Shown piece by piece: positions 7,318-45,051 of a stretch of 64,000 nucleotides of DNA. Position numbers and translations under genes: made by a program. The notes under the pieces were generated by a model, which saw only the letters and a program-made list of their open reading frames with translations, was not told the origin of the DNA and did no database searches. How positions within the stretch are numbered: the stretch's first letter is position 1; every line of letters starts with the position of its first letter. Location: the NCBI GenBank assembly GCA_963281255.1, contig OY725488.1, forward strand, positions 11,071,524-11,135,523, read 5' to 3'. Source of the DNA: Aphrocallistes beatrix (lineage: Eukaryota; Porifera; Hexactinellida; Sceptrulophora; Aphrocallistidae).

Positions 7318-8433
7318 CTAGGTTATGAGAAGTGGGTCAGTAAGGCTTGGAGTGAATCTAGTACGAACTCTTCCGAATCGATACTTCAATGCATTCCAAA
7401 GTATCTCACCAAAAAATGCAGCAGTAGCGAATAGGTACTGAGAAGAAATCACGATAGATGCAATTGCAACCAAAATTGTAGAAATCCCTGAGACAATCTC
7501 ACTACTGATGTATATAGTATCGATCTGTTGCTTATAGCTCAGTAATGGCTCGTAGTAGGAAGTCCCATAAAGATGATGGAATAGACAAGGACCATAATAA
7601 ATTACTGTCATAATGATGAAGGACGAAATGTGAAGAAATCCATTCAAAAGAATGCTTAAAAAACCTATTCCCATCAAACTCATAATGGAAGCAAAATGGT
7701 AGCAACTTTTGATCGATCTTCTGACTATCTGACTGCTCCTACCTCTAACTTTAAATTCTACAGACCTCCACTTCAGTGTTTTATAAAAGGTTCGGGCCTG
7801 TTTTGCCCACAAACATAAATATATAGCTCTGATTACAAGGTCAAATAACCTTTGAAGGATAAACAACTGAGGAACAGATCCTGTGACAAACAAAGCAATG
7901 CAAAGCAAAAATGTAATTACAAGCATGCGTCTTATAAATGAAAATGTTTTTGCATTTATATCATGGTATTTGTCATTTAAATATCTCATGAGACATATTA
8001 ATAGTGCAAGAGTAAATATAAAAGAAGCATTCCCTAGATCAGTGAAAACTGTTGTGATTGGATTAGCAATAGCCTGTAAATCAGAGTTGTGAATGGTCAC
8101 TATTGTGCAATTATTAATTTGGTTGTGATCTAATGAAAAAAACAAAAAACTAATCTCATACATTCCAAATGAAGTTATTTCGATTATATTTATCATTATT
8201 AAAAATAAGTACTTAACAATTTCAACTTTGTAATGGAGTGCTCGCTCTGAAGAATTACCGAATATATCAGTTCTAGATTCTTCCATGGACTCACGATATA
8301 ATCGAACAAAGTATAGAATCCTCTTTACGAAGTAGATATCCCACAGCAATGATAACCCAATCATTATACATACACAAAGGAAAAACAAGTAGCCTATGTT
8401 ATTTTCGATATTTTGAAAATATTTGTCGGACAT
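7318..8433 (-). CDS. Orphan multi-pass membrane protein, clade I, copy 1
   Basis: 371 residues, single exon, from ATG at 8433. Hydrophobic spans lie at about 13-33, 71-97, 128-150, 167-188, 193-213, 247-290 (one or two spans) and 317-347. The basic segments VKRILYFVRLYRES, FYKTLKWRSVEFKVRGRSS and the tail KYRFGRVRTRFTP lie between or after spans and, by the positive-inside rule, are cytosolic. That puts the short N-terminus and the loop bearing the sequon NNCT outside, a receptor-like layout. Clade I markers are LWDIYFVKR, GNSSERALHYKVE, KSCYHFA and CLFHHLYGTSYYEPLL. No GPCR, gustatory-receptor or transporter motif was recognised. It is the leftmost copy of the array. Function unknown. Confidence 0.85.
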   Translation of the reverse strand: MSDKYFQNIENNIGYLFFLCVCIMIGLSLLWDIYFVKRILYFVRLYRESMEESRTDIFGNSSERALHYKVEIVKYLFLIMINIIEITSFGMYEISFLFFSLDHNQINNCTIVTIHNSDLQAIANPITTVFTDLGNASFIFTLALLICLMRYLNDKYHDINAKTFSFIRRMLVITFLLCIALFVTGSVPQLFILQRLFDLVIRAIYLCLWAKQARTFYKTLKWRSVEFKVRGRSSQIVRRSIKSCYHFASIMSLMGIGFLSILLNGFLHISSFIIMTVIYYGPCLFHHLYGTSYYEPLLSYKQQIDTIYISSEIVSGISTILVAIASIVISSQYLFATAAFFGEILWNALKYRFGRVRTRFTPSLTDPLLIT

Positions 8434-8474
8434 CGTTATTAATCTTGCTCTTTGCAGGATTGATGTGCTTCATG

Positions 8475-8482
8475 TTTTTATA
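8475..8482 (-). promoter_or_regulatory. TATA box of the 7318-8433 gene
   Basis: CTATAAAAAC on the minus strand, about 40-50 bases before the ATG. The same CTATAAAAAC word is found at the same place in the two neighbouring clade I copies (near 12120 and 14468). Confidence 0.55.
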
Positions 8483-8737
8483 GTTGTCTATAATTGCATG
8501 TATTCCACATATTATAGAGGGAAATATTTTCATATTATTATGATTGATTGCATTAAATCAGGGATATTCACATAGGATAAATCTGTATCATTCCCATCAG
8601 CAATAAGATTGATTTTTCCCTGATACATTATATCCTATTCCATAATAGTGCATGATTAATGAATAATCCAAATGAACTTTACCCTACAGTGAAGTAGTTT
8701 CACCTTTACTTTTAGATATGATGTGCTATCATAGATA

Positions 8738-8890
8738 TAGCCTACTCTACAAAGTCTATCACAGAATGAGGATATGTACCAGGAATTCGGTCTAAATTCA
8801 TTGAATTCTTACATGGTGAATCTAAAATCATTAACCATGTAGAATAAAACTTAGGATTGTATTACCATTTTATAAATACATGGCCCTGTA
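8738..8890. repeat. Relic of foldback-element arm
   Basis: CCTACTCTACAAAGTC.., then TTAACCATGTAGAATAAA, then GTATTACCATTTTATAAA matches the outer arm of the foldback element at 36830 in order and spacing, with many substitutions. Weaker relics lie near 14718-14805 and 60640-60720. Confidence 0.55.
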
Positions 8891-9404
8891 AGGTTAAACT
8901 GACGATGATATTCTGAACTGTTCTAGGTACACTTTAGGACATTAAGATAAATAACTTTAGTTCTGAATGCTGCAAACAGTTAATTCAAAAAATTGGAATT
9001 TTTCAAAATAATGTTCCTGTGTTTTTATAGAAAATCATTTATTCGATTGTAGGTATATCTGGGAAATCCTATACTTTGGCTTTCAAATCAGATTTTAGTG
9101 GCTGCTTTTGGTTGCAAATGAAAACTTTTAGAGTTATCCGACAAACGATTTAACACTTCCGTTCTTACAAGTGTATTTGCAAGATAATTCAATGTTTCAA
9201 AGTAATCTTTAAGTTTTTGAATTTGATTAAACTTTTTGGATCTTTCTTGCCCTCTTCTGGAGCATAGCACCAGTTGCTAATTACAAGTAAAGCTATATGC
9301 TGCTCTTGTTTGAATACCGAATACATTTCATAAAATGGGTGAAAACTGTCCTACCAACCAAGTTCCAAATGCTGCATGTTTAACTATCTAATTTTCTGAT
9401 ACAT

Positions 9405-9660
9405 TGCGACCTCAATTGGAGAAATTGGGCTAACTTTTCCTGAAAGAAATGGTCCCCGAATCAAGAAAAAATTAGTCTATTTGAACAGTTTTTCCTGAAA
9501 GAAATATTCTTCCGAATCAATTTTCCTGAAGAAATGGTCCCTAGACTAATTTTGCAAGAAAAAGCTGGTCCCATGGACCAGTATTCATGAGAAAATTAGT
9601 CTCCGGACCAGTTTTTCCAGAAAGAAATGTCCCCCCCCCGACCGTCTTTTGGCGGATCAA
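9405..9660. repeat. Degenerate tandem repeat, TTTTCCTGAAAGAAATGGTCC units
   Basis: Five or six imperfect units of about 40 bases alternate TTTCCTGAAAGAAATGGTCC with GGACCAGTTTTTCC, giving GGTCC/GGACC half-palindromes at regular steps. It is related in composition to the arrays at 1775 and 2870-3445. Confidence 0.55.
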
Positions 9661-10960: not shown

Positions 10961-12031
10961 CTAGGATATGAGAAGTGGATCAGTAAGGCTGGGAGTGAAT
11001 CTAGTACGAACTCTTCCGAATCGATACTTCAATGCATTCCAAAGTTTCCCACCAAAAAATGCAGTTGTGATGAATATGTACTGAGAGCCAACCAGGATAT
11101 AACTAGTTGCAACCGAAATGGAAGAAATCCCAGATGCAATCTCACTACTGAGGCGCAAAGTCTCGATCTGTTGGTTTGAGGTTAATAATGGCTCGTAATA
11201 CGAAGTCCCGTAGAGATGATGGAATAGGCAGGGACCATAATAAATTACTGTCGTAATGATGAAGAAGGAAATGTGAAGAAAACCGTTTAAAAGTATGCCT
11301 AAAAAACCTATTCCCATCAAACTCATGATGAAAGCGAAATGGTAGCAACTCTTGATTGATATTTTGACCATCTGACTGCTCCTGCCTCTAACTTTAAATT
11401 CTACAGACCTCCACTTCAGTGTTTTATAGAAGGTTCGAGTCTGTTTTGCCCACAAATAGAGATAAACAGTGTTGACTACGAGTTCAAGTAGCCTGTGAAA
11501 GATAAATAGTTGTGGAACAGATCCTGTGATAATCAAAGCAAAGCAAAGCAAAATTGTAATTACAAGCATGCATCTTATAAATGGAAATGTTCTGCCATTT
11601 ATATCATGGTATTTGACGTCTAGATATCTCATGAGACATATTACTAGTGCAAAAGTAGATACTAGAGAAGCATTTCCTAAAGCAAAAATAACTGCTGCGA
11701 ATGGATTAGCGATAACTTGTATATCAATGTTATCAATGGTCCCTATTGTGCAATTATTGATTTGGTTGTGATCAAATGAAATCACCAAAAAACAGAATTG
11801 GAGCATTCCAAATGAACTTATTTCGAAGATACTTATCATTATCAAAAAGAAATACTTAACAATTTCAACTTTGTAATGTAGTGCTGCAACGGAAGAATTA
11901 CCGAATATATCAGTTTTAGATTCTTCAATGGATTCACGATACAATCGAACAAAATATAGAATCCTCTTTACGAAGTAGATATCCCACAGCACTGATAATC
12001 CGAGCATTATGCATACATAGAGTAAAAACAA
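10961..12031 (-). CDS. Orphan multi-pass membrane protein, clade I, copy 2 (start damaged)
   Basis: The open frame encodes about 350 residues collinear with copy 1, from the first span to the intact tail GRVRTRFTPSLTDPLLIS. The outer loop has NNCT. The conserved N-terminus is not in frame: the ATGs at 12080 and 12077 lie where copy 1 starts, but they run out of frame relative to GYLFLLYVCIM, and a TGA lies upstream in the coding frame. The first in-frame ATG is at 12007, inside span 1. Either a one- or two-base indel has just disabled the gene, it uses a shortened start, or the assembly has an error. The rest of the frame is undamaged, so the lesion must be recent. Confidence 0.65.
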   Translation of the reverse strand: MFLLYVCIMLGLSVLWDIYFVKRILYFVRLYRESIEESKTDIFGNSSVAALHYKVEIVKYFFLIMISIFEISSFGMLQFCFLVISFDHNQINNCTIGTIDNIDIQVIANPFAAVIFALGNASLVSTFALVICLMRYLDVKYHDINGRTFPFIRCMLVITILLCFALIITGSVPQLFIFHRLLELVVNTVYLYLWAKQTRTFYKTLKWRSVEFKVRGRSSQMVKISIKSCYHFAFIMSLMGIGFLGILLNGFLHISFFIITTVIYYGPCLFHHLYGTSYYEPLLTSNQQIETLRLSSEIASGISSISVATSYILVGSQYIFITTAFFGGKLWNALKYRFGRVRTRFTPSLTDPLLIS

Positions 12032-12116
12032 GTAGCCTATGTTATTTTCGATTTTCTGAAGATGTGTTGAAACTCATCATTTAATATTGCTGTTTGTAGG
12101 ATCTTTATACTCAGTG

Positions 12117-12125
12117 TTTTTATAG
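12117..12125 (-). promoter_or_regulatory. TATA box of the 10961-12031 gene
   Basis: ACTATAAAAACAC on the minus strand, at the position equivalent to the TATA box of the neighbouring copy, about 40 bases before the ancestral ATG. Confidence 0.5.
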
Positions 12126-12857: not shown

Positions 12858-14426
12858 AGGTTTTGAGAAGTGAGTTAGTAAGGCTGGGAGTGGATCTAGT
12901 ACGAACTCTACCAAATCGATACTTCAATGCATTCCAAATTTTTCCACCCAAAAATGCAGTTGTAGCGAATAGGTACTGAGAGCTAATAACGATATAAGTA
13001 ATTGCAACCAAAAAGGTGGTAATCGCTGATACAACCTCATTACAGATGTGTAGAGCCTCGATCTGTTGGTTTGAAGTTAGTAATGGCTGATAGTAGGGAG
13101 TCCCATAGAGGTGATGAAATAGACGGGACCGGAATAAATTGCTGTCGTAATAATGAGGGAGTATATCTGAAGAAACCCACCCAAAATACACTTAAAAAGC
13201 TTATTTCCATCAAACTCATAATGAAAGCGAAATGGTAGCAACTTTTGATTGATCTTCTGACCATCTGACTGCTCCTACCTCTAACTTTAAATTCTACAGA
13301 CCTCCACTTCAGTGTTTTATAAAAGGTTCGGGCCTGTTTTGCGTACAAACATAAATATACAGGGTGGACTACAAAGTCCAGTAACCTCCGAAGGATAAAT
13401 AATTGAAGAACAGATCTTGTGACAATCAAAGCAATGCAAATCAAAGTTGAAACCACAAGCATGCATCTTATAAATGGAAATGCTTCGGCATTTATACACT
13501 GCCTTACCAAAGTGTTCGTACACCCGATAGTTCCCATACAAATTGTATAAATCGTATCTATTTTTTGAGTCAATGGTAACAAATCAGTTTGAATAAATTT
13601 GGCTTAAAATCCATATTCTATACACTCGATTTACTCATCATATATAGTCTCTCAACTCAATTACTCTCCTTCAAACATAAATATTTGGATATTTACTTCA
13701 TTGTGCTACATACAATAAATAAATGCCACTATATATGATGGCGTTAGTGGCACTAGGTGTCACAGGTTAAAATATTTAACTTTAAAATAGAGTAATTGAG
13801 TTGAAAGACTATAAAATGAGTACATCGAATGTGTAGAATATAAACTTTAAGCCAAATTTAGTCAAACTGTTACTGATTTATTACTATTGACTCCAAAAAT
13901 AGATACGATTTATACAATTTGTATGGGAATTACTGAGGTGTACAAATACTTTTGGTAGGGCAGTGTATCATGGTATTTGACATCTAAATATCTCATGAGG
14001 CATATTACCAGTGCAAGAGTCAATACTCTAGAAGCATTTCCTAGAGACGTAATTACAGCTGTGATTGGATTTGCAATAACTTGCGAATCAATGCTATGGA
14101 TTTACCCTATTGTGTGATTATTAATTCGATTATGATCCAATAAAATTACTAAACAGGAGAACTGGAATGCACTTATTTCGATATTACTTATCATTATCAA
14201 GAAGAAATATTTAACAATTTCAACTTTGTAATGGAGTGCTCGCTCAAAAGAATTACCGAATATATCAGTTTTAGATTTTTTCCATGGATTCACGATATAA
14301 CCGAACAAAGTATAGAATCCTCTTTACGAAGTAGATATCCCACAGCAATGATAACCCGAACATTATGCATACACAGAGGAAAAACAAGTCGAATATGTAA
14401 TAATCGAGTATTTTGTTGGAAATCAT
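12858..14426 (-). pseudogene. Orphan membrane protein, clade I, pseudogene split by a MITE
   Basis: The ancestral ATG (14426) and about 50 codons are readable (LWDIYFVKR, FVRLYRESME). A frameshift follows at the ESMEKI position, then readable but shifted segments (ALHYKVEIVKYFF, RTFYKTLKWRSVEFKVRG), a 469-base MITE inside the span 3-4 loop, another frameshift near 13150, and a changed tail (RTRSTPSLTNSLLKT) that has lost the stop. At least three independent lesions make it clearly dead. The MITE inserted at a TA within TTTATATCATGG, a site still uninterrupted in the 10961 copy. Confidence 0.85.
13497..13965. mobile_element. Tc1/mariner-type MITE inside pseudogene
   Basis: The 469-base element has inverted termini CACTGCCTTACCAAAGTGTT and, on the other strand, CACTGCCCTACCAAAAGTAT, and is flanked by TA on both sides. 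Removing it and one TA restores the gene sequence GCATTTATATCATGG. Fish and invertebrate Tc1 elements have similar CACTGCC..AAAAGTATT ends. Much of the interior is also inversely repeated. A diverged partial relative lies at 48679. Confidence 0.8.
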
Positions 14427-15190
14427 TATTTAATCTTGCTTTTTGAAAGATCGCTAGCTCCATGTTTTTATAGTTTTTCTACAAAAGCATATATTGTGTA
14501 GTCTACATATTATAGAGGAAAATGTCTTCATAGTATTGCAAATAATTATTTAATTCAGAGGATGTTCAAAATCAGATAAATCTCAATTCTTACCTACTAA
14601 CAATAATATTGATTTGCACTGATGCATTAAATCTTATTTTGCAATACATAGTACCGATAAGGATAATTCAAATGAACTTCACTACACAATCGGAGTAATT
14701 TCACTTTGCCATAGCTATAGCCCACTCTACAAAATGGCCTTCTATCAGAGTAAAAATATGCACCAGGGATTCTGTCGAGGATTAATATGGAGTCAAAGTA
14801 CATAAGCCCTTTCCCTAAATAAGCGTCCTGGAACTTATTTTTTTATGCTCAAAAAGTAAATGACCATCTTGAGATCGAATTTGGCAATTTTCTCAACTGT
14901 TACGAGCACACTTTAAAGCATTAGATATAGAACTTCCAGATAGAACCAAGCTGGGGACAGTTTCTTCAATAAATTCAATAAATCGATTCAAATTTTTTTA
15001 CTCATTTTCATTTTGGCATTTTCGCATTCTTGTTATGCTATTATTTGAACAAAATATTACTAACATGAAGAAAATAAAGATATAAACTATCATGGCAATC
15101 AAGAAATTATAGATCTTTAAGTAGTTTGCTTAATGAATCGGTGTTACATTATACTGAATCGACTCGACTGTATGATTAGGTACTTTGGTC
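14427..15190. other. Intergenic gap upstream of clade I pseudogene
   Basis: A TATA-like CTATAAAAAC (minus strand, near 14468) belongs to the pseudogene promoter. A weak relic of the foldback-arm repeat is at 14718-14805. No gene was found. Confidence 0.4.
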
Positions 15191-17386: not shown

Positions 17387-17449
17387 CTTGCAGTCCATAT
17401 TATATGTCTTATCCAGAAAAATTCTATTTTGAAAAGTAGCTTTAAAAAT

Positions 17450-18571
17450 ATGAACAGAAATCAAATTTTAGAAGCTGTAGGCAATGATGTAGGTTACTTC
17501 ATATTTTTCGGTTTATTTTTGTATGTTGGATTAACTACACTTTGGAATGTATATTTTGCAAAGAGGATTATACATTTCGTTACCTTGTACAGAAATTCTG
17601 TAGAAGATGCTAAGACGGACCTATTCGATAACTGTGCAGAACTAGCTCTACACTATAAAGTTGAAATAGTTAAGTATACATTTATGCTAGTGATAAATAA
17701 CACTGAAATGGGTGGGTTCTTAATGTATACAATTGGGGCAGGACTGACTGATCTAAAACCAACCAATGCCACAAATAATACTTGCACTAGTCAGATAGAT
17801 AATGCTGATTTGCAAGTTATTATTGGCACTGCAATTGAAGCAAAGTTCATCAGTGTGGGACAAGCCGGATTATTGTTGTCAGTAGCACTTGTGACATGTC
17901 TAATGAAATATCTTGATGCAGCATATCACAACATTAATAATCAGTCTCTGAAGTCCACTAAAATCATCCTCTTGATCTCATGTGTGATTGGAGTTCTTCT
18001 GATTATCACAGGATCCATCCACCAATCATTTATCCTTGAAAGGCTAATATTTCCTATTATAGCACTGGTATATCTGTTTTTTTGGATCAAGCAAATCCGT
18101 ACATTTTACAAAACACTGAAGTGGCAATCTGTAGAGTTCAAAGTTAGAGGAAGGAGCAGTCAGATTGTAAAGAGAGCAGTGAAAAGCAGTCACCATTTTG
18201 CTGTCATCATGTGCCTGATGGGATTTGGGGCACTTTGCTTAACTTTAGCTGAACTTGTTAAAGATTACTTTTTCATATTCACTATCTTTTCATACTGTCC
18301 AAATCTCGTCAAACAACTCTATGGGATTCCTAACTACCAACCTCTACTTACTATGACATCACAAATTAATGCTTTTACAGTTTTCAGTGAGATAACAGCA
18401 AAAATTTCGACAATCCTAGCTCTGATTGCTTTCCTAGTCATTATGTCTCAATACGTGTTAGCCACATTTGTATTCTTCAGTGGAATGTTTTTAAAAAGAC
18501 TCAAATATCGTTTCGGAAGAGTCCGTACGAGGTTTACCCCTAGCCTTACTGACCCACTTCTCATCTCCTAA
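17450..18571 (+). CDS. Orphan multi-pass membrane protein, clade II, copy 1
   Basis: 373 residues. The ATG at 17450 was chosen over the upstream TTG because every clade II copy starts ATGAAC at this point, 64-73 bases after a TATA box. Spans lie at about 15-35, 74-96, 129-151, 166-187, 192-212, 246-265, possibly 271-286, and 318-345. The outer loop 2 has sequons NAT and NNT next to a cysteine. Inner-loop signatures are AKTDLFDNCAELALHYKVE and RTFYKTLKWQSVEFKVRG, and the tail GRVRTRFTPSLTDPLLIS is intact. Clade II markers are LWNVYFAKRIIHFV and KSSHHFAVIMCLMG. No known receptor or channel motif was recognised. All features of an active gene are present. Confidence 0.88.
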   Translation: MNRNQILEAVGNDVGYFIFFGLFLYVGLTTLWNVYFAKRIIHFVTLYRNSVEDAKTDLFDNCAELALHYKVEIVKYTFMLVINNTEMGGFLMYTIGAGLTDLKPTNATNNTCTSQIDNADLQVIIGTAIEAKFISVGQAGLLLSVALVTCLMKYLDAAYHNINNQSLKSTKIILLISCVIGVLLIITGSIHQSFILERLIFPIIALVYLFFWIKQIRTFYKTLKWQSVEFKVRGRSSQIVKRAVKSSHHFAVIMCLMGFGALCLTLAELVKDYFFIFTIFSYCPNLVKQLYGIPNYQPLLTMTSQINAFTVFSEITAKISTILALIAFLVIMSQYVLATFVFFSGMFLKRLKYRFGRVRTRFTPSLTDPLLIS

Positions 18572-20219
18572 GATTGAGTAAGAATCAAATCTGTAATATT
18601 TCCTTGTATTCAATTTAAAAAGTTGTATGTTATCTTTGTTATTTCTATAATTAATGGAGCATAACATGTTATTAATTCATTATTAAACATTTTGAAAGCA
18701 ATCAAATTACTTTGAAAGAATCGAAAGGGCGACAAGCGAACAAAAGCCCCAAAACGGAATTTGTTGATGGGTTCCCATCGCTAGGAACCGAGCACTTACA
18801 AAGAAATCATCGGTGCTTGGGATTCACTGCATTCTTTTCTTTCAGTTCCTGAATTTTAAAAATAGCAACATCTTACTGAATTGATTTGTAGTGGAGCAAT
18901 TCTATCTAGTATAGACTTGTTTTATTTTGAATCAAACCGTCATCTACCTACGAACTTCAGTGTTTTTCCCGAATCTTATTATTACTTACAAAATAGCAGT
19001 AGTATTTGCAAGCAATTACGCAATGTATACTTTAAATTACATATAACAATTATTAAGTTATTTATCCCAGCTCTTTGAACTGATGGAGTAATTAATAAGC
19101 AGGGATTATACTTCTATTAGGATTAAAACAATTTACGACATTTTACTACATACACGCAAAAAAGTACTGTGATGAAATTGATCTGAATGATGTGCGTCAA
19201 TTCATTAGCACAAACACCCGCCGCTTAGCATATTTTGTTTTTTCAGGCTAAATAGTTGAATTTGGATAATCAATTTCATTGAAGAAAGAGAAGAAACATT
19301 TTTTATACTTCTTAATATAGGCATGCAAATTAATAAATCTAAACAGACCTCTAAGAATATAAAAATTAATTTTTCTCTGAGGGACAGACCCCCATATCCC
19401 CCATTTATTCGTTCGTTACGCTTGCTTTGTCTTCAATTCTTAGCTCCCCAAGTATTTGACAGCACCACTTACATATGTACTTAGCTAATACATGTGACTC
19501 CATGATTACATTATTGATCACAACACATTGCTAATAGCTTAGCTAACATTACTAATACATATTTTTTCGGGAACTTCCCATTCTTAGGTAATCCTTATGT
19601 AGATTACTACATAAGGTTTACCTAAGAATTGGTTTAAATTATTATATGAACATAAGCATCATAATGGTCACAATATTTTCCATGAACAATCATTTTAATT
19701 GTGTCAAACATATTATTTATATACAGGTTTTCATATCATTTAATGAATTATGAAAAATATGCCAGAGACTAGCTTCCAACGGTTAAAGGGGTTTTTAGAG
19801 GAGTAGATTTTGAATATCTTATTTTCGAATTACGTATATGCTAGATTCTTCGTCACTTTTGTTTACAATAGATACATAAAATAATCACATCTCAAAAAGA
19901 TGTCAAAAACTAGTTTTAAACTGTCACATATTTATAGTGCTCTAACAGTGACAATTTTCTTATACAAATTTGAAGCAAATAAAGTACAGGTTAGTTTAAA
20001 GTGTAGTTCTGAGCTAAACTGATGTAGTGATAGAATATCAGTTCACCTAACAGAGAATAATATTATAAGTTCTACAAAAGTAAATTGGTATTGGTTTAAC
20101 TGCTAAATGAAAGCAGGTTACGTAGTATAACATTATCCCAATTTGAAAATTATATAAATACTTAACTATATTCTGTTTTATCATCAATAATTCTATCTTG
20201 AGAAGTGTCTTTTGAAAAT
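18572..20219. other. Downstream flank and gap, clade II copy 1
   Basis: The segment 18700-18960 (GAATCGAAAGGGCGAC.., GGTGCTTGGGATTCACTGCA) is shared with 41215-41300 plus 41800-41960 downstream of the 39944 copy, showing that flanks were duplicated with the genes. A perfect short hairpin, TAGGTAATCCTTATG..CATAAGGTTTACCTA, lies near 19585-19625. A Helitron-like relic is at 19738-19890, and the next conserved promoter block is at about 20015-20165. Confidence 0.5.
19738..19890 (-). repeat. Fragment of Helitron-like element body
   Basis: TATGCCAGAGACTAGCTTCC, AACGGTTAAAGGGG and GTAGATTTTGAATATC match the reverse complement of the body of the 744 and 34273 elements (CCGTTGGAAGCTA.., GAAATTTACGCCCCTG). 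Terminal hairpins are missing. Confidence 0.5.
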
Positions 20220-21005
20220 ATGAACATAAATAACATTTTCTAAGATGTTGGATATGATGTATGCTACTTGAAGTCTTTCAGTGTATTGATGTATGGTGGA
20301 TTTGCTGCATTTTGGGATTAACGGACTATTCAACAAATGTATGTAATTGAGGCAGGACTGATAGATCTAAACCACAAATAACACTTGCACTAGTCAGATA
20401 GATAATGCTGATTTGCAAGTTATTATTGGCACTGCAATTGAAGCAAAGTTCATCAGTGTGGGACAAGCCGGATTATTATTTAGGCATGCCTAATTTCCGG
20501 GACGGTCCCGTCCCCGAAATTAGGCATGCCCATATTATTGTCACTTTCACTTGTGATCTGTCCAATGAAGTATCTTGATGCAGTCTATCATAGCATCAAT
20601 GCTAATCCTGCAAAGTCAATTAGAATTATTATTATTATTTCATGCATGATTAGATTTCTGCTGTTTATCACAGGATCCATCCGCTAATCATTCATTCTTC
20701 AAAGGTTTATCTATCCTATTACTACTATAATGCTGATATATTTTAGTTTTTGGACCAAGCAAACTCATACATTCTATAAAACACTGAAATGGCAATCTGT
20801 AGAGTATCGAGTTAGAGGAAGAAGCAGTCAGATAATATAAAGAGCAGTTAAAAGTAGTCACAATTTGCTGTTTTGATGTGCCTGGTGGGATTCGTGGCAC
20901 TTTGCTTAACTTTGCTGAACTTATTGATAGCTGCTTTTTCATATTACCACATTTGCCTCCTGTCCTAAACTCACACAACTCTACGGGACTCCTGACTACG
21001 AACCT
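20220..21005 (+). pseudogene. Orphan membrane protein, clade II, decayed truncated copy
   Basis: The ATG and TATA-bearing promoter are preserved, but the eighth codon is a stop. The region between span 1 and the outer loop is deleted, several frameshifts follow, a 51-base MITE sits at 20481, and the sequence ends near TGACTACGAACCT, losing the last span and tail. Recognisable DNA blocks include those coding for ADLQVIIGTAIEAKFISVGQ and RTFYKTLKWQSVEY. The promoter region of the next copy begins directly after it. Confidence 0.85.
20481..20531. mobile_element. 51-base palindromic MITE inside pseudogene
   Basis: TAGGCATGCCTAATTTCCGG opens and CCGAAATTAGGCATGCCC closes; almost the whole element folds into one hairpin. 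It interrupts gene sequence coding for AGLLLS. Flanks TTATTATT and ATATTATT agree at 7 of 8 bases. The interrupted site is intact in the 17450 copy. Confidence 0.75.
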
Positions 21006-21250
21006 TCGATTCGCTAGTCATTTTTCTTTATCTAAATATGAAGCAAATAGAGTACCTGTTGGTATAAAGTGTAACTCTCAATAAATACTGACGATGTATT
21101 AGAATATTAGTTCACTTAACATAGGATAATATTATGACGAGATTGATCAAAGTACTAGTGGTACAAATATGCATGAATTAAGACAGTGGAATAGGCTTAA
21201 ATGCTTACTGAACGCAAGTCAAGCAGTGTAGTATTGTCTCAATTGGAAAT

Positions 21251-21260: not shown

Positions 21261-21321
21261 CTTCTAACTGTATTCTGTTTTATCAGGAAAAGTTCCATTT
21301 TGAGAAATTTCTTTCGAAAAT

Positions 21322-22437
21322 ATGAACATCAATCAAAACGTATATATTGTTTACAATGATGTAATTTACTTCATGTGTTTCAGCGTATTTATGTATTTTG
21401 GAATATGTGCACTTTGGAACGTTTATCTAGCAAAGAGGATTATACATTTCGTTACCTTGTACAGAAAGTGTGTAGAAGATGCTAAGACGGACTTATTCAA
21501 TAACTGAGAACTAGCACTACACTATAAAGTTGAAATAGCTAAGTATACTTTTATGCTAGTAATAAATACCACTGAAATGGTTGGGTTCTTAATGTATGTA
21601 AGCGGGATAGGATTAGTTAGTCTAAACCCAACCAACGCCACAAGTAACAATTGCATTAATAAGATGGAGAGCACTGATTTGCATGTTATTGGCACTCCAA
21701 TAGCAGCAGTGTTCATCAGTGTTGGACAAGTCGGATTATTATTGTCATTAGCACTAATGACATGTCTAATGAAATATCTTGATGCAGCATATCATAACAT
21801 TAATAATCAGTCTTTGAACTCTACTAAAATCATCCTCTTGATCTCAAGTGTAATTGGAGCTCTACGGATTATCACAGGATCCATCCACCAATCATTAATC
21901 CTTGAAAGGCTCATCTATCCTATTATAACGCTGATATATTTTAGTTTTTGGGTCAAGCAAACCCGTACATTCTATAAAACACTGAAGTGGCAGTCCATAG
22001 AGTATCGAGTTAGAGGAAGGAGCAGTCAGATAGTAAAGAGAGCAGTCAAAAGCAGTCATCATTTTGCTGTTATAATGTGTTTGGTGGGAGTTGCGGTACT
22101 TTGCTTAACTTTGACAGAAATTGTTGACGATTACTTTTTCATATTCACTTTGTTTACCTACTGTCCCAAACGCCTCAATCAACTCTATAGAACTCCTGAC
22201 TACGAACCGCTCTTTACTACAATATCACAAATTCATGCTTTAACAATCTCCAGTGAGATTACTTCAGGAATTCAGACAATCCTATCTCTGGTTGCTTTCC
22301 TTGCCATGATTTCTCAATACATGTTAGCTACATTTGTATTCTTCGGTGGAATGTTCGTAAAGAAACTCAATTATCGTTTCGGAAGAGTCCGTACGAGGTT
22401 TACCCCTAGCCTAACTGACCCACTTCTCATCTCCTAA
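21322..22437 (+). pseudogene. Orphan membrane protein, clade II, copy with one in-frame TGA
   Basis: The frame is open from ATG 21322 to the normal stop at 22437 except for a single TGA at 21505-21507. Other copies read AAC TGT GCA GAA here. Loss of three bases joined TG to AGAA, giving AAC TGA GAA in the same frame. Everything downstream is intact, including the NAT sequon loop, FKTLKW-type inner loop (here SIEYRVRGRSS) and the full tail. It is either a very young pseudogene or a gene with stop readthrough. Re-initiation at the ATG at 21553 would give a 294-residue product lacking the first span and inner loop. Confidence 0.8.
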
Positions 22438-24402: not shown

Positions 24403-25521
24403 ATGAACATAAATCGAAACTTATATGTTAGTTACAATGACCTGTTTTACTTCCTGTGTTTCAGCGCATTTATATATTTTGGATTGTGGGCACTTTGGAA
24501 CGTTTATCTTACAAAGAGGATTATATACTTCGTTACTTTGTACAGAAAGTCTGTAGAAGATGCTAAGACGGACCTATTCGATAACTCCGCAGAACTAGCA
24601 CTACATTATAAAGTTGAAATAGTTAAGTATGCATTAATGCTAGTGTTGAATACAACTGAAATAGGTGGCTTCTTAATGTATGTCATCGGGGTAGGAGTGA
24701 ATAATCTAAGCTCAACTAATGCCACAAGTAACAATTGCATTAGTAAGATGGAGAACACTGATTTGTATGTTATTGGCACTCCAATGGCAGCAGTGTTCAT
24801 CAGTGTGGGACAAGTCGGATTATTATTGTCAGTAGCACTAATGATATGTCTGATGAAATATCTTGATGCAGCATATCACAACATTACTAATCAGTCTTTG
24901 AACTCTACTAAAATCATCCTCTTGATTTCATATATGATTGCAGCTCTACGGATTATCACAGGATCTGTCTACCAATTATTTATCCTTGAAAGGTTCATCT
25001 ATCCAATTATAACGCTGATATATTTTATTTTTTGGATCAAGCAAACTCGTACATTCTATGAAACACTGAAGTGGCAGTCCATAGAATTCAAAGTTAGAGG
25101 AAGAAGCAGTCAGATTGTAAAGAGAGCAGTCAAAAGCAGTCATCATTTTGCTGTCATAATGTGTTTGGTGGGAATAACGGCACTTTGCTTAACTTTGACA
25201 GAGATTGTTGACGATTACTTTTTCATAATCACTTTGTTTACCTACTGCCCTAAGCTCCTCAAACAACTCTATGGAATTCCTAACTACAAACCGCTCTTTA
25301 CTACAATACCACAAATTCATGCTTTAGCACTTTCCAGTGAGATTACTGAAGGAATACAGACAATCCTATCTCTGGTTGCATTCCTTGCCATTACCTCTCA
25401 ATACATGTTAGCTACATTTGTATTTTTCGGTGGAATGTCCATAAAGAAACTCAAATATCGTTTCGGAAGAGTTCGCACGAGGTTTACTCCTAGCCTTACT
25501 GATCCACTTCTCATCTCCTAA
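24403..25521 (+). CDS. Orphan multi-pass membrane protein, clade II, copy 4
   Basis: 372 residues, ATG start, no lesions. The closest relative in the window is the nonsense-bearing copy at 21322 (MNINxN start, ATSNNC loop, TEIVDDYFFI). Differences from its sisters include FYETLKW where others have FYKTLKW in the large inner loop, and DNSAELALHY where others have a cysteine. One NAT sequon lies in the outer loop between spans 2 and 3. The tail GRVRTRFTPSLTDPLLIS is intact. It is probably the functional member of the 21322/24403 pair. Confidence 0.87.
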   Translation: MNINRNLYVSYNDLFYFLCFSAFIYFGLWALWNVYLTKRIIYFVTLYRKSVEDAKTDLFDNSAELALHYKVEIVKYALMLVLNTTEIGGFLMYVIGVGVNNLSSTNATSNNCISKMENTDLYVIGTPMAAVFISVGQVGLLLSVALMICLMKYLDAAYHNITNQSLNSTKIILLISYMIAALRIITGSVYQLFILERFIYPIITLIYFIFWIKQTRTFYETLKWQSIEFKVRGRSSQIVKRAVKSSHHFAVIMCLVGITALCLTLTEIVDDYFFIITLFTYCPKLLKQLYGIPNYKPLFTTIPQIHALALSSEITEGIQTILSLVAFLAITSQYMLATFVFFGGMSIKKLKYRFGRVRTRFTPSLTDPLLIS

Positions 25522-28788: not shown

Positions 28789-29910
28789 ATGAACAAAATT
28801 CAAAACTTTTTCGATCTTATTGACAAATATGTAGTTTATTTTATGTTTTTCAGCGTATTTATGTATGTTGGATTGTGGGCACTTTGGAACGTTTATCTAG
28901 TAAAGAGGATCATACATTTCGTTATCTTGTACAAGAAGTCTGTAGAAGATGCTAAGACGGACCTATTCAATAACTGTGCTGAACTAGCTCTACACTATAA
29001 AGTTGAAATAGTTAAGTATGCATTTATGGTAGTGTTAAATACAACTGAAATGGGTGGGTGGTTAATTTATGTAAGTGGGATAGGATTAGCTAATTTAAAC
29101 CCAACCAATACCACAAGTAACAATTGCATTATTAGAATAGAGAACACTGATTTGTATGCTATTGGCACTCCAATGGCAGCAGTGCTCATCAGTGTTGGAG
29201 AAGTCGGATTTTTATTGTCATTAGCACTTGTGACATGTCTAATGAAATATCTTGATGCAGCATATCACAACATTAATAATCAGTCTCTGAAGTCTACTAA
29301 AATCATCCTCTTGATCTCATGTGTAATTGGAACTCTACGGATTATCACAGGATCCATCCACCAATCATTTATCCTTGAAAAACTGATATATCCTATTATA
29401 ACACTGATATATTTTAGTTTTTGGGTCAAGCAAACCCGCACATTCTATAAAACACTGAAGTGGCAGTCTGTAGAGTTTAAAGTTAGAGGAAGGAACAGTC
29501 AGATTGTAAAGAGAGCAGTCAAAAGTAGTCATCATTTTGCTGTCATAATGTGTTTGGTGGGAATTACGGTACTTTGCTTAACTTTGGCAGAAATTGTTGG
29601 TGATTACTTTTTCATATTCACTTTGTTTACTTACTGTCCCAAACTCCTCAATCAACTCTATAGAATTCCTAACTACGAACCTCTCTTCACGACAAAACCA
29701 CAACTCGATGCTTTAGCACTTTCCAGTGAGATTAAAGCAGGAATTCAGACAATCCTATCCTTGGTTGCTTTCCTTACCATCACATCTCAATTCGTGTTAG
29801 CTACATTTGTATTCTTAGGTGGAATGTTCGTAAAGAAACTCAAATATCGTTTCGGAAGAGTCCGCACGAGGTTTACTCCTAACCTTACTGACCCACTTCT
29901 CATCTCCTAA
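28789..29910 (+). CDS. Orphan multi-pass membrane protein, clade II, copy 5
   Basis: 373 residues, no lesions. It is most similar to the 35514 copy (shared EMGGWLIY/EIGGWLIY in span 2, EIVGDYFFI, TRFTPNLTDPLL tail with Asn instead of Ser). The outer loop sequon is NTT next to NNC. In the large inner loop RGRNSQIVK replaces RGRSSQIVK. The span-2 tryptophan and the Asn tail define a subgroup of two genes. An AATAAA polyadenylation signal lies at 30029, about 120 bases after the stop. Confidence 0.87.
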   Translation: MNKIQNFFDLIDKYVVYFMFFSVFMYVGLWALWNVYLVKRIIHFVILYKKSVEDAKTDLFNNCAELALHYKVEIVKYAFMVVLNTTEMGGWLIYVSGIGLANLNPTNTTSNNCIIRIENTDLYAIGTPMAAVLISVGEVGFLLSLALVTCLMKYLDAAYHNINNQSLKSTKIILLISCVIGTLRIITGSIHQSFILEKLIYPIITLIYFSFWVKQTRTFYKTLKWQSVEFKVRGRNSQIVKRAVKSSHHFAVIMCLVGITVLCLTLAEIVGDYFFIFTLFTYCPKLLNQLYRIPNYEPLFTTKPQLDALALSSEIKAGIQTILSLVAFLTITSQFVLATFVFLGGMFVKKLKYRFGRVRTRFTPNLTDPLLIS

Positions 29911-30575: not shown

Positions 30576-30630
30576 GCATTGCGCCTTACCCAGATTTTAA
30601 ACCTAAAAGGTTCTCCTAGTGCACAAGGAT

Positions 30631-30890
30631 CAGGGATGCCGTGTGAATGGGAATCTGAGGGAATTCCAATGGGAAAGCCCACAGATTCCCATATGGGATG
30701 AGAATGGGAATTCCCAGATGTGGGAATCTGTGGGATTTCCTGTGGTATTATGTGGTATTATGTGGGATTTCTTGTGGGTTTCTGTGGGATTTCCTGTGGG
30801 TTTCTGTGATATTCTGTGGGAATTGCCACAGAAATCCTGTGAGAATGGGATGGGAATGGGTATTGAAATTCTATTCCCACGGCAACCCTG
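30631..30890. mobile_element. hAT-type MITE rich in GTGGGAATT repeats
   Basis: Termini CAGGGATGCCGTGTGAAT and, inverted, CAGGGTTGCCGTGGGAAT. The interior is a run of GTGGGATTTC/TGTGGGTTTC units. Flanks ACAAGGAT and ACAACGAT match at 7 of 8 bases. It directly abuts the hAT transposase relic and may be its former terminal region or a separate insertion. Confidence 0.7.
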
Positions 30891-30899
30891 ACAACGATA

Positions 30900-32581
30900 C
30901 TATGACAATGATACTAAGGAGGCCCTCGTTGAGTGGTTGTTTGACACATTTGTGGCCCCACACTGTATAATGAATGAATCTTGGGATGTGTTCATAGCCA
31001 AGATCGATGATACTATTGCACGTATCACGTATGAACAGTTGTACCGTATTATGGATTATATTAAGGAGAGACATTACACGCACATCAAGAAGATTATCGC
31101 AGAAGAGGTCCAGTCTCTAGGCAAACGTTGCCAACGTTGAAGTCGGATGAGGAGACGAATAATCGCCATTATGCCTGCATTCTCCTTAATTGGGTGGATA
31201 AGGACCACCAACACAGGTGCATCTGCTTGGATTTCAAGCTCTGTGAAGGCTCTGCAAATGGCCCCCACCTCAAGCATTACATCTACGAGGTTCTGGACGA
31301 ATGGGACCTTTCTGATCTCCTAGATGACAAGTGACACGGGGTCAAACATGCGAAATGCGTTGGAAGGCTTTGATTGGAATCGTTGCGTGGTTCACAATAT
31401 TAACAATGTTATGGATGTTGCACTCGGGGTTCGTATCCACATTAGGTGGAGAATCAAGTTTCTACCAATCCAGTTGCCCATGATTTTCTCAAACGCGCTC
31501 GCGGCTTAGTCGCCTACTTCAAAAGGAGTGGAGATCGAACAGAAAGGCTCTCTGGCGTGCAGCTTGAGATGTTCGATAATGTCTAGAATGTGCTTCAGGA
31601 CCACTACATACGTTGGAACTCTATAGCGGACATGCTCGATCGCCTCTGGAAACTGAAGCCAGCTATCCAATTGTATTTTACGACCCACGATCCCGATTCG
31701 GAAGCACAGTTCTCGGTTCAGGAGTGGCATATTTGTGCTCAGTGTGTTGGTGTTTGTGGTCAACCACGTCAAGCCACCCAGTCCAGTCTGAAATCGACAG
31801 CCTTGCAAAGTGAAGTCTTTGGCATGATCATGAACCTGAGAAAGTCAATGGAACCATCGCGTCCAGTGATCGTTCCTCAGGCAGGTCACAGTCATGGTAT
31901 CAATGGAAGTGCTGCGAGCGGGTCTCTTTCCGTCGCCCAAGAAGATTTGCTGTCGGTTCCGAAATCCATTCGTGAGCTCTGTTAGAAGGAGCTGAAAGAG
32001 CGTTTCTGTCTTGAGAATATGCTCTCGGACAAGATGTGTCTCTGCCTCTAATTGGACCCGCGCCTCAAGGAGCTCTCGTTTCTGAATAACCAGCAGCGCA
32101 AGCTGGTTCTCAAAGTTGCCAAGGATTTGTATTTCGTTCGTAATCCTAGACGCGCCCTCCTAACCCAGATGCCGAGGAGGATGTGGAAGTGATGCCAGGC
32201 GGTGATTACGTGGGCGCGGCTGTTGTCGATTTCTTCGGACAATTTGACTTTTTTGGACAGCTATCAGAACAGACTGTGCATAACCTTCGACCTTCGCCAT
32301 TGGATGACACAGATTTTGGCAAATATAAGTCACTTCCGGTAGTTGCTGGTGGGAAAATGTTCAATGTCCTTCAGTGGTGGGAGAAGCATTCCGAGATTTT
32401 TCCTATTCTGAGCAGCCTGGCTCGGACCGCTTTTGGCTCGCGTCCCTCCAGCGCCAATGTTGAAAGGGCATTCAGCCACGGTCACCACCTTGTCTCACCT
32501 TTGAGATCTCGAATGCTACCTCAGCGTGTTGAGATGTGGATGTTCCTTTATCTGAACCGCAAGCTCAAGTTCAACTACTGA
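30900..32581 (+). pseudogene. hAT transposase relic
   Basis: Coding similarity runs through all three plus frames. Upstream text includes RHYACILLNWVD and LCLDFK-type strands, then TSDTGSNMRNALE (the RNase-H-like D..N segment of hAT transposases), HNINNVMDVALG, and finally SRPSSANVERAFSHGHHLVS..RSRMLP with FLYLN, the C-terminal hAT dimerisation region. At least four frame changes and several stops separate these pieces, and no zinc-finger N-terminus is readable. GC content is visibly higher than in neighbouring DNA. It interrupts the duplicated flanks of the array. Confidence 0.85.
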
Positions 32582-37899: not shown

Positions 37900-37907
37900 A
37901 TAGCATA

Positions 37908-39943: not shown

Positions 39944-41074
39944 ATGAACAGAATTCAAAACTTAAACTATCTTATTGACAATGATGTAGATTATTTCATG
40001 TTTTTCTTCATATTTGTGTATGTTGGATTAATCACACTTTGGAACGTATATTTTTCAAAAAAGATTATATACTTCGTTAGCTTGTACAGGAAGTCTGTAA
40101 AAGATGCTAAGACGGACCCATTCGATAACTGTGCAGAACTAGCACTACATTATAAAGCTGAAATCGTTAAGTATGTATTTATGCTAGTGATAAATACCAC
40201 CGAAATGGGTGCGTTCTTAATGTATTCAATTGGGATAGGATTGACAGATCTAAACCCTACCAATGCTACAAATACAAATAACGATTGCATTAGTAATAGA
40301 TACAACACTTATTTGAATATCATTACTGGCATTCCAATGGAAGCAGTGTGTACCAGCATTGCTCATGTCGGATTTTTAATGTCATTAGCATTTGTGACAT
40401 GCCTAATGAAATATCTTGATGCAGCATATCATAACATTAATAATCAGTCTCTAAAGTCCACTAAAATCATCCTCTTGATCTCATGTGTGATTGGAGCTCT
40501 ACTGATTATCTCAGGATCCATTCACCAATCACTTATCCTTGAAAGGCTCATCTTTCCTATTATATTGCTGGTATATCTGTTTTTTTGGTTCAAGCAAATT
40601 CGTACATTTTACAAAACACTGAAGTGGCAATCTGTAGAGTTTAAAGTTAGAGGATGGAGCAGTCAGATTGTAAAGAGAGCAGTCAAAAGCAGTCATCATT
40701 TTGCTGTCATAATGTTTCTAATGGGAATTGGGGTACTTTGCATAACTTTAGCGGAAATTGTTGATGTTTTCTTTTTCATATTTACTATATTCGCTAACTG
40801 TCCATATATTGTCACACAACTCTATGGAACACCTGACTACGAACCTCTGTTTACTATGACACCACAAATTAATGCTTTAACACTTTCCAGTGAGATTACA
40901 GCACAATTTTCGACAATCCTAGGAATAGTTGCTTTCCTTGCCATTATATTTCAATACGTGTTAGCTACATTTGTATTTTTCGGTGGAATGTTCGTAAGGA
41001 AACTGAAATATCGCTTCAGATTAGTGCGCACGAGGTTTACTCCTAACCTTACTGACCCACTTCTCATCTCCTAA
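39944..41074 (+). CDS. Orphan multi-pass membrane protein, clade II, copy 7 (divergent)
   Basis: 376 residues from ATG 39944. The most divergent clade II copy, grouping with 17450 (FSKKIIYFV, IILLVYLFFWFKQ, ISTI-type last span). The outer loop is longer, with sequon NAT and sequence TNTNNDC. Two positions fixed elsewhere are changed: RGWSSQIVK in the large inner loop (Arg to Trp) and KYRFRLVRTRF in the tail (Gly-Arg to Arg-Leu). With the weakened TATA box this could be functional divergence or the start of relaxed constraint. The frame is fully open. Confidence 0.85.
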   Translation: MNRIQNLNYLIDNDVDYFMFFFIFVYVGLITLWNVYFSKKIIYFVSLYRKSVKDAKTDPFDNCAELALHYKAEIVKYVFMLVINTTEMGAFLMYSIGIGLTDLNPTNATNTNNDCISNRYNTYLNIITGIPMEAVCTSIAHVGFLMSLAFVTCLMKYLDAAYHNINNQSLKSTKIILLISCVIGALLIISGSIHQSLILERLIFPIILLVYLFFWFKQIRTFYKTLKWQSVEFKVRGWSSQIVKRAVKSSHHFAVIMFLMGIGVLCITLAEIVDVFFFIFTIFANCPYIVTQLYGTPDYEPLFTMTPQINALTLSSEITAQFSTILGIVAFLAIIFQYVLATFVFFGGMFVRKLKYRFRLVRTRFTPNLTDPLLIS

Positions 41075-42571: not shown

Positions 42572-42990
42572 AAGCGCGCTTCGCTTGGTTACGCTGCGGG
42601 GCTGGCGGACACAACGTGTCCGCCGGAGCCGCCCTTTGGGCGCCTAGGGTCACATTGATCAATTAAAACGGGGATAACATCACTAAATATGTATGTCCTA
42701 CTGTTACAATCGAAATCGCACGAAAGGTGTAATGATGATGTCATAACAGAGTGATGAGCTATCATTTTTTGATGATAGTTGCATCATGTGTGAAGTGTAT
42801 TAATATATACATTCTATTAAAATTTCAGCCTTCTATCACCTCAAATGGCCGAGTTATAGTCGAAAAACTGAAATTTCTAATTATAAAAAAGGTGACAATG
42901 ACGTCATAATTTCATGATGAGTCGACATTTTGGTCTGAGCTCAGAACCTAGTGGAGCCATAGCCAAAAGACTCCCACATGCCAAAAATCA
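42572..42990 (-). mobile_element. Helitron-like element, second subfamily, truncated
   Basis: It has the same GC-rich hairpin end (AAGCGCGCTTCGCTTGG, GCGGACAC..GTGTCCGCCGG) as the 744 family, joined to a different body: CACATTGATCAATTAAAACG, TGATGAGTCATCATTTTTTG-like words, GACAATGACGTCATAAT. It is collinear with 54681-55140. The AT-rich 5' end is missing where it meets the pseudogene at 42997. Confidence 0.55.
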
Positions 42991-42996
42991 GCTTAT

Positions 42997-43510
42997 AGAA
43001 TTAAAAGTTGCGGAATGAGTCTGGTAATTAGGAAAAAAAATCCAACTAAACTTGTAACCGAGAAAAAATGCCGAATATACTGCCAGCATCTACCTCTAAT
43101 ATCATAATATATGACTTCTAGGTATTTCATAAGGCATAATAATAATAATATAATAATAATCTATATTTATATAGCGCAGATTCCATATTAATATATTCAA
43201 GTGCGCTCACCAAAGTGCAATTGTTTATTGGTTCGTCAATACGAGTTAGGTTTAGAATCAAAACGCCTAATTCATACACTGCTGCACCAACAGTTTCCAT
43301 GGCAGTGATTACTAACAGAAAAGCATACTTAACTACTTCAGCCTTATAATGGAGTGATAGTTCTGTGGAGTTGTAGAGTATGCCATTTTTTGCCTTTTTC
43401 CAGACTCAAGGTATGATCTGACGTGTAATACAGAACCATCTTTACAAAATAGACCTCCCATACTAAAGCTAATGGCAAGAATATGCAAGTAGAAATTTAA
43501 TGACTTTTTA
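42997..43510 (-). pseudogene. Orphan membrane protein, clade I, N-terminal relic
   Basis: The reverse complement reads, with frameshifts, YGRSIL.RW (span 1 border), NSTELSLHYKAEVVKYAFLL, METVGAAVYELG, RIDEPINNCTL (outer loop), LMKYLEVIYYDIRG, WQYIRHFFSVTSLVGFFFLIT and RLIPQLLIL, in the order of the intact 43924 gene up to span 4-5. The outer-loop to span-3 part is replaced by an ATA/TAA microsatellite, and the second half is absent. It lies about 420 bases from the intact clade I gene, divergently. Confidence 0.8.
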
Positions 43511-43853
43511 TCTGCTGGAGTTAGGTAATGACTCTACCAGACTTATCCATATACGTATGTACATCTGTATAGAAAGTGTTTCAAATTAGAGGTTAAATAT
43601 AACGGAAAATTTAGATCGTATATATTAATTACTACATAGCCTACTTGTAATCAACTTTTATTTTTTTATGTATGATTAAAGGTTTTTATAATTTTAATAT
43701 TTGTGAGCATTACTATAGTATCAGATGGCAAGAATCCAGTCCCATTACTAATAAGTTATGACTATTTTGGATTTATTTGATGAATAATCCTTTAGTAGTA
43801 ATTGTATTTCTCCTAACCAGACGGGTATACTTCCCAAAGGAAAGCTTCAATGC

Positions 43854-43861
43854 TATAAATA
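43854..43861 (+). promoter_or_regulatory. TATA box of the 43924 gene
   Basis: CTATAAATAC, 63-70 bases upstream of the ATG, the same spacing as in clade II. Confidence 0.6.
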
Positions 43862-43923
43862 CCTTGCACTATTAGCCATAGTCATACGATATGTTGATGA
43901 ATCTCTAAGTAAATCTGACAAAG

Positions 43924-45051
43924 ATGTTTGCCCATTATTTTAAACACTTCGACAATGATATATTCGTCACGTTTCTTTTTTTCGCATGTATATTCCTAGC
44001 ATTAGCTGCAGTATGGGATATCTACTTTGTGAAGATGATTCTGTATTACACCCGATTATACCGCGAATCTATAAAAGAAGCAAAAACTGACATTCTCGAT
44101 AACTCTTTAGAGCTAGCACTCCACTACAAAGCTGAGATAGTTAAGTATGCGTTTCTATTAGCAATCAATGTCATTGAATCTATTGGTTTAATAACGTATC
44201 ATTTAACTGCTTTGATTCCAATCTCTGCACCTATTGACAAAATAATAAATAATTGTACCACTGCTAGGGATATTTACAACTTCCATAATTATCGATTAAT
44301 TCCTGATCCAATCACAACCGTAACTACAGCGGTTGGAGAACTATCGCTGTTATTTTCTTTATCTCTGGTGATATGCCTTATGAAATATCTAGATGTGACA
44401 TATCATGATATCCATGGGAAATCATTTCAGTATATTCGAAAGTTTCTCTTGGTTACATTTTTGGTGGGAATCTTTTTGATTATCACCGGATCTATACCTC
44501 AGCTCTTCATCCTTCAAAAGCTATCTGAGTTTTCCATCAATCTTGTCTTTTTCTGTCTCTGGGTGAAGCAAACCCGCACTTTTTACAAAACACTTAAGTG
44601 GAGGTCTGTAGAATATAGAATTAGAGGTGTGAGTTGCCAGATAGTCACGAGATCAGCCAAGAGTTGCTACCATTTTGCTGTTTTTATGAGTATGGTAGGA
44701 ATGGGCTTTCTGTCCGTAGTTTCATCAATTATTGTGCAAAAGTGCTTTTTTCTAATTGCAATAGCACTTCGCTATGGTCCATGCCTCTTTCACCGTGTCT
44801 ATGGGACTTCTCACTACGAGCCTTTACTTACTACCAAACAACAGATTGAAGCTTTCAACATCAGTAGAGAATTTGTATTAGGAATTGCAACAACTCTACT
44901 TGTAGTTGCTTACCTTTCATTTGGTTTGCAGTATCTAACAGTTACATTTGTATTTTTTGGTGGAAAACTTTGGAAAAGTTTGAAGTATCGATTTGGAAGA
45001 GTCCGTACTAGATTTACTCCGAGCCTTATGGATCCACTTCTTCTAACTTAA
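43924..45051 (+). CDS. Orphan multi-pass membrane protein, clade I, right-end copy
   Basis: 375 residues, ATG 43924, no lesions. Sequence markers are clade I (VWDIYFVKMILYY, KSCYHFAVFMS, CLFHRVYGTSHYEPLLT), yet it is on the plus strand at the far end of the array. The outer loop has an extra segment (ARDIYNFHNYRLIPDP) and the sequon NNCT. The inner loop differs most from the rest (YRIRGVSCQIVTRSAKSC), and the tail reads RTRFTPSLMDPLLLT. It is the most diverged intact member, with its own dead paralogue next to it at 42997. Confidence 0.87.
   Translation: MFAHYFKHFDNDIFVTFLFFACIFLALAAVWDIYFVKMILYYTRLYRESIKEAKTDILDNSLELALHYKAEIVKYAFLLAINVIESIGLITYHLTALIPISAPIDKIINNCTTARDIYNFHNYRLIPDPITTVTTAVGELSLLFSLSLVICLMKYLDVTYHDIHGKSFQYIRKFLLVTFLVGIFLIITGSIPQLFILQKLSEFSINLVFFCLWVKQTRTFYKTLKWRSVEYRIRGVSCQIVTRSAKSCYHFAVFMSMVGMGFLSVVSSIIVQKCFFLIAIALRYGPCLFHRVYGTSHYEPLLTTKQQIEAFNISREFVLGIATTLLVVAYLSFGLQYLTVTFVFFGGKLWKSLKYRFGRVRTRFTPSLMDPLLLT

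What the first reader, a model, noticed from the sequence alone, without database searches (positions are those of the whole stretch)
7318..45051. Tandem array of an unrecognised single-exon 7/8-span membrane protein family
At least twelve copies (seven intact, one with damaged start, four pseudogenes) share about 370 residues, a short N-terminus, seven or eight hydrophobic spans, a sequon-bearing loop between spans 2 and 3, two large basic loops and a basic tail. By the positive-inside rule the layout is N-out with a cytosolic tail, like many receptors. I recognise no rhodopsin-type DRY/NPxxY, no insect GR/OR C-terminal motif and no transporter motif. Intronless tandem copies with birth-and-death turnover are the usual genomic habit of chemosensory or immune receptors. 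Identity as a receptor is inference; novelty means only that I do not recognise it.
Basis: partly seen in the sequence, partly recalled or inferred. Interest (0 to 1): 0.82.

Follow-up and report, generated by a model that had tools for sequence, protein, structure and literature searches.

The report
Large unannotated GPCR-fold receptor family
The window holds part of a long tandem array of single-exon membrane proteins that look, in predicted fold and orientation, like G-protein-coupled receptors but match no catalogued family; they could be a large set of chemical sensors in an animal, probably a sponge, in which only one rhodopsin-type receptor gene was found.

Summary
The window has 13 matching stretches, about 12 copies: eight long open frames (one without its ATG), one copy with an in-frame stop, and fragments. 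They belong to an array of about 290 kb; in the 264 kb read, 86 places match and 47 have frames of 350 aa or more. Genome-wide: at least 179 places, broken copies included.

Best reading: a GPCR family new to the libraries, acting as chemoreceptors, perhaps in a glass sponge. Lack of introns is ordinary if so. The fold is predicted; ligand, G-protein coupling and expression are inference. The species is not identified, and relatives in other sponges could not be tested.

The parts
7318..8433 (-). family member, intact, 371 aa; query of the second structure model
10961..12070 (-). family member, long open frame, no ATG at the expected start
12859..13591 (-). fragment of a broken member, two frames
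13949..14450 (-). fragment, two frames, probably the other part of the same broken member
17429..18571 (+). family member, intact (an ATG at 17450)
20217..21011 (+). fragment of a broken member, two frames
21307..22437 (+). full-length member with one in-frame TGA
24403..25521 (+). family member, intact, 372 aa; query of the first structure model
28789..29910 (+). family member, intact, 373 aa
35505..36632 (+). family member, intact (an ATG at 35514); lacks the outer-loop cysteine C112
39923..41074 (+). family member, intact (an ATG at 39944)
42996..43487 (-). fragment of a broken member, two frames
43924..45051 (+). family member, intact, 375 aa; farthest in the tree from its nearest relative among the window's long copies

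Best explanation
These are cell-surface receptors of the seven-helix GPCR fold, forming a family that the sequence models searched do not describe. The short N-terminus and three outer loops face outside, and the third outer loop is probably tied to the first by a disulfide. The outer halves of the helices, where GPCRs bind small ligands, vary most between copies. The inside loops and the conserved basic tail form a constant surface for one shared effector, most likely a heterotrimeric G protein. Tandem duplication with frequent loss keeps making new pockets on the same signalling chassis, as in chemoreceptor families. The host, probably a sponge and perhaps a glass sponge, would use them to sense water-borne chemicals or microbes. 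Shown here: the copies, lower bounds of genome numbers, conservation, charge pattern, selection pattern, tandem origin. Predicted: fold and topology. Inferred: disulfide, ligand binding, G-protein coupling, chemosensory role, host.
Against: The models rest on 8 related sequences and are not independent; Foldseek gives no match at E <= 0.001 and low TM-scores. No sequence or profile link to any GPCR class was found. Class A motifs are missing. The second outer loop is short (10 residues) with no conserved cysteine, unlike class A (recalled). Lipid-facing residues also vary in any membrane protein, so high dN/dS in outer helix halves is suggestive only. No pooled or listed pair value exceeds 1, so positive selection is not shown. 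No expression, ligand or coupling data.
Confidence: 0.66

Rival explanations
1. GPCR-fold receptors, but for internal signals or self/immune recognition rather than environmental chemistry: each copy or set marks a cell lineage or an individual.
For: Birth-and-death array; a variable, sequon-bearing first outer loop; an AIG1 GTPase gene inside the array, a family that PMC10282587 discusses in connection with pathogen recognition and immune gene expansions (section 6).
Against: Outside parts are short (N-terminus about 10 residues, loops 10-49), and dN/dS is at least as high in the outer helix halves (0.55) as in the outer loops (0.47, overlapping bootstrap ranges), which points to small ligands.
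Confidence: 0.15
2. A seven-helix protein that is not a signalling GPCR: a transporter, channel or lipid enzyme whose shallow-alignment model merely resembles a GPCR.
For: Model confidence is moderate; Foldseek E-values are weak, and the lists also hold a designed helical repeat and an ABC transporter; no sequence link.
Against: The 50 listed structural matches are GPCRs for both models. N-out topology by charge disagrees with insect-type 7TM channels, which have an intracellular N-terminus (PMC9998090, passages). Only one histidine position is conserved at 90% or more (H159, in an inside loop), unlike metal-dependent seven-helix hydrolases (recalled).
Confidence: 0.12
3. Divergent class A receptors that lost the hallmark motifs (this overlaps the best explanation; it differs on ancestry only).
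For: The listed structural matches are mostly class A. The end of TM3 reads M-[K/R]-[Y/F]-L (position 152: K 63 and R 9 of 76; position 153: Y 70 and F 6 of 76), which resembles DRYL, and TM2 has an invariant acid (E86, 76 of 76); both equivalences are my own reading by eye.
Against: No 7tm_1 match in 23 of 23 members at E <= 1. The one 7tm_1 locus found in the genome does match and shares no profile signal with the family (the same shallow test also failed to link known classes, so it is weak).
Confidence: 0.2

Closest known systems
Class T bitter taste receptors (TAS2R), as a working analogue
   Different: No Pfam match. Long first and third outer loops with a predicted disulfide, very short second outer loop, own conserved C-terminal motif. 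Animal group without taste organs, if a sponge.
Class A (rhodopsin) GPCRs
   Same: Predicted fold and topology; K/R-Y at the end of TM3; an invariant acid in TM2.
   Different: No sequence match; no acidic-Arg-Tyr triplet, no NPxxY; cysteine layout differs.
Sponge-specific Rhodopsin clusters AqRho-A to E of Amphimedon (PMC4302439: abstract and sections 5, 7, 13)
   Same: Sponge lineage expansion, neighbouring copies, no orthology to other animals' receptors.
   Different: Those were found through Pfam 7tm_1 models; members of this family scanned here do not match them. Direct comparison of sequences was not possible.
Insect odorant/gustatory receptors (7TM ion channels)
   Same: Large divergent tandem chemosensory families of about 370-400 aa with seven helices (recalled).
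   Different: Those have an intracellular N-terminus (PMC9998090, passages); here N-out by charge.

Membership tests
GPCR fold superfamily (any class) | seven-helix bundle of GPCR architecture | tested here: met
GPCR fold superfamily (any class) | N-terminus outside, C-terminus inside | tested here: met
   K+R 24.6 inside against 5.7 outside, 76 members; by charge only
GPCR (functional) | ligand-dependent activation of a heterotrimeric G protein | not testable with these tools
   only that G-alpha genes exist in the genome
Class A rhodopsin GPCRs | match to Pfam 7tm_1 | tested here: not met
   0 of 23 members at E <= 1; the same model finds one other locus in this genome
Class A rhodopsin GPCRs | [DE]RY at the end of TM3 and NPxxY in TM7 (motifs recalled) | tested here: not met
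   position 151 is M 61/V 12/L 2/A 1, position 152 K 63/R 9/E 3/N 1 of 76; TM7 reads mostly [QE]YxxxT/S; equivalence of positions read by eye
Class B/adhesion and class C GPCRs | match to Pfam 7tm_2 or 7tm_3 | tested here: not met
   0 of 23 members at E <= 1, while other loci of the genome match
Class T (TAS2R) | match to the TAS2R sequence family of Pfam | tested here: not met
   not among Pfam matches of 23 members at E <= 1; fold similarity only
Insect-type 7TM ion channels (OR/GR/GRL) | seven TM helices with intracellular N-terminus | tested here: not met
   charge distribution puts the N-terminus outside; definition from PMC9998090 (passages)
Insect-type 7TM ion channels (OR/GR/GRL) | fold match to Orco-type structures | tested here: inconclusive
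   not among the listed matches, which does not exclude it
Vertebrate-style chemoreceptor gene families | one or few copies per cell, expressed in sensory cells | not testable with these tools
   no expression data

The most novel reading that the evidence does not exclude
A separate GPCR class, unknown to sequence libraries, expanded to at least 179 places (broken copies included) in a sponge lineage nearly without rhodopsin-class receptors and became its main chemosensory repertoire, so that a neuron-free animal has a nose-like receptor system of independent origin.
Probability: 0.4. Interest if true: 0.78.

Novelty: new variant of a known kind. Interest (0 to 1): 0.62.

Why it matters
The Amphimedon GPCR census (220 receptors) was built with Pfam models (PMC4302439), and the 2025 survey started from choanoflagellate receptors (PMC12716839, abstract and passages). 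A receptor family with at least 179 places that Pfam models miss would be of nearly the size of such a whole list and would change what sponges are thought to be able to sense. It also gives a concrete, testable set of receptors for how animals without neurons detect food, symbionts and settlement cues.

Tried and rejected
Sequence links: Pfam on three window members and on 23 members, NCBIfam on 8, PDB sequences by single sequence, 23-row and 66-row profiles: none a GPCR. In the 23-member Pfam scan 15 families matched one or two members each, best E 0.0022; NCBIfam gave 3 families, best E 0.12; the PDB profiles gave SecG at 0.44 and a dehydrogenase at 1.1. I treat all these as chance. Prokaryote, viral and plasmid collections: no relative, as expected for an animal gene. 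hhalign of the family against this genome's class A (one sequence), B (5) and C (5) receptors found nothing, but it also failed to link those classes with each other, so it says little. Retinal-binding opsin: TM7 has on average 0.13 K+R per protein, so no conserved lysine. Insect-type receptor channels are not in the 50 listed matches of either model; that absence is not proof.

The genome has 5 TGF-beta domain matches, one 7tm_1 match from a six-frame, exon-by-exon search, class B and C matches, no Wnt match (the control was silent too, so absence is not shown), and AIG1 sequence inside the array. The glass sponge Oopsacas lacks Wnt but has TGF-beta members (PMC10280926, passages); Aphrocallistes and Oopsacas have many single-exon transcripts, and Aphrocallistes has a tandem AIG1 cluster (PMC10282587, sections 5 and 6). 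I infer a glass sponge; this is not established. A search for an assembly of about 100.5 Mb showed no such sponge among what was listed (15 of 1,544 papers; 7 of 7).

Literature: nothing describing this family was seen in the listings (titles and starts of abstracts) (25 of 269; 20 of 172; 20 of 24; 20 of 469; 15 of 45; 15 of 1,529; 12 of 150), nor in the passages and sections of the six papers opened (PMC12716839, PMC4302439, PMC10280926, PMC10282587, PMC11526382, PMC9998090). The library lacks most subscription papers and I read no supplements, so this is not proof that it is unpublished.

Rows dropped: 78 members with stop-to-stop frames of 355 aa or more, minus 2 exact duplicates, gave 76; shorter and broken copies were left out of all statistics. 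The two duplicates removed were the array's own names of copies kept under L009 and L016, so the array has 45 rather than 47 genes in the tree test. A4 used 66 of the 72 references available.
Full report
What is there. Eight window copies used as queries find 13 stretches between about 7318 and 45051 on both strands. Eight have stop-to-stop frames of 370 aa or more; one of these lacks its ATG; one further full-length copy has a single in-frame TGA; the others are fragments, of which two are probably one broken copy. Identity to the copy at 24403 is 46 to 79% for the other seven long copies.

It is part of something much larger. The window lies at C1:11071524-11135523 of a 100.5 Mb genome in 28 contigs. 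Two protein searches, which scored only 110 of 419 and 111 of 426 candidates, list 221 places that collapse to 152 distinct ones on 16 contigs. A degenerate DNA pattern for the conserved tail gives 115 matches, with none in its reversed control; of the 100 listed, 27 lie outside the 152, and the 7 of these that I checked are family sequence. So there are at least 179 places, genes and broken copies together. The largest cluster runs over about C1:10.870-11.162 Mb. In C1:10868001-11068000 plus the window I count 86 places, 47 with frames of 350 aa or more.

Anatomy, from 76 long members with median length 375 aa and pairwise identity 32-94%. N-terminus about 10 residues; seven spans; inside loop 1 about 41, outside loop 1 about 37, inside loop 2 of 17, outside loop 2 of 10, inside loop 3 of 34, outside loop 3 about 49, tail about 31. 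K+R totals 24.6 inside and 5.7 outside; inside loop 2 by itself is not net positive. A sequon is in outside loop 1 in 76 of 76; sequons also occur in segments assigned inside. C112 in outside loop 1 is present in 73 of 76, and 75 of 76 have exactly one cysteine at 282 or 284 in outside loop 3, so these probably pair. Invariant or nearly so: W32, E86 (mid TM2), L154, G187, W224, F249, P283, R353 and P363; the end of TM3 reads mostly M-K-Y-L. The tail motif YRFGxVRTRFTPxLxxxLL contains the least variable ten-residue block (residues 351-360); one subgroup around C1:11.015-11.068 Mb ends differently.

Sequence libraries are silent. No Pfam GPCR family matches any of 23 members at E <= 1; nothing meaningful in NCBIfam or among PDB sequences. 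Other receptors of the genome are seen by Pfam models: one 7tm_1 match, 36 7tm_3 matches and 134 7tm_2 matches, many of them exon pieces. These counts come from six-frame searches without introns and are not gene counts. By places, the new family exceeds each.

How it probably works. In pairs of related copies (27 non-overlapping pairs, dS below 0.8) pooled dN/dS is 0.55 in outer helix halves, 0.47 in outer loops, 0.37 in inner helix halves and 0.31 inside (95% bootstrap ranges 0.47-0.62, 0.39-0.55, 0.31-0.44, 0.28-0.35). So the genes are under constraint, the inside face most, the region where GPCRs bind small ligands least. In 31 of 45 array genes the nearest relative is within two genes, against 3.6 expected in shuffles. 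This fits a family that varies its pocket and keeps its effector surface. G-alpha genes are there to be used. That the ligands are environmental is inference from family size and turnover.

Host. TGF-beta domains present, Wnt not found with a silent control, one class A match, AIG1 sequence inside the array, single-frame neighbours: together these resemble published glass sponges (PMC10280926, passages; PMC10282587, sections 5-6). The A. vastus paper reports three larger tandem clusters on one scaffold, only one of which could be given a function; whether one of the others is this family I could not test. If the host is a glass sponge, lack of introns is common there and carries little weight.

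What is known. Amphimedon's census lists 126 7tm_1, 40 7tm_2 and 33 7tm_3 receptors, found with Pfam (PMC4302439, abstract and sections 5, 7, 13). [quoted passage not shown] I could not compare sequences with any of these, so the family may overlap one of them. Verdict: real, receptor-like, most likely a GPCR family new to the libraries; chemoreception is the leading but untested use.

Noticed in passing
window 3618-5210 + and 6147-6941 +: AIG1 (GIMAP-type) GTPase gene (E 1.6e-15) and a partial AIG1-like membrane protein (below Pfam's cut-off) inside the array, between family copies on both sides; A. vastus has a tandem AIG1 cluster (PMC10282587, section 6).
   Followed up: partly
window 30619-32581: GC-richer stretch inside the array with an hAT transposase C-terminal dimerisation domain (Dimer_Tnp_hAT, E 1.2e-15, at 32183-32581 +); nothing mended.
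   Followed up: partly
window 46048-46548 and 50853-51695; 53186-53707 and 55416-56129 (+): What looks like a duplicated pair: a protein without a Pfam match followed by a CAP-Gly protein, twice in tandem.
   Followed up: no
G000:C10:4157164-4158087 (L029): The only 7tm_1 match found in the genome; it reads as a class A receptor with a DRF and an NPIIY stretch.
   Followed up: partly
G000:C4 about 4.94-5.89 Mb; C9 429-445 kb; C14 1.11-1.19 Mb: Dense runs of 7tm_2 and 7tm_3 matches, so other receptor classes also occur in clusters here.
   Followed up: no
G000:C1 about 11.015-11.068 Mb: A family subgroup whose tail ends in variants of LIGREEVRRYYF instead of the usual LL ending; the effector surface may differ.
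   Followed up: no
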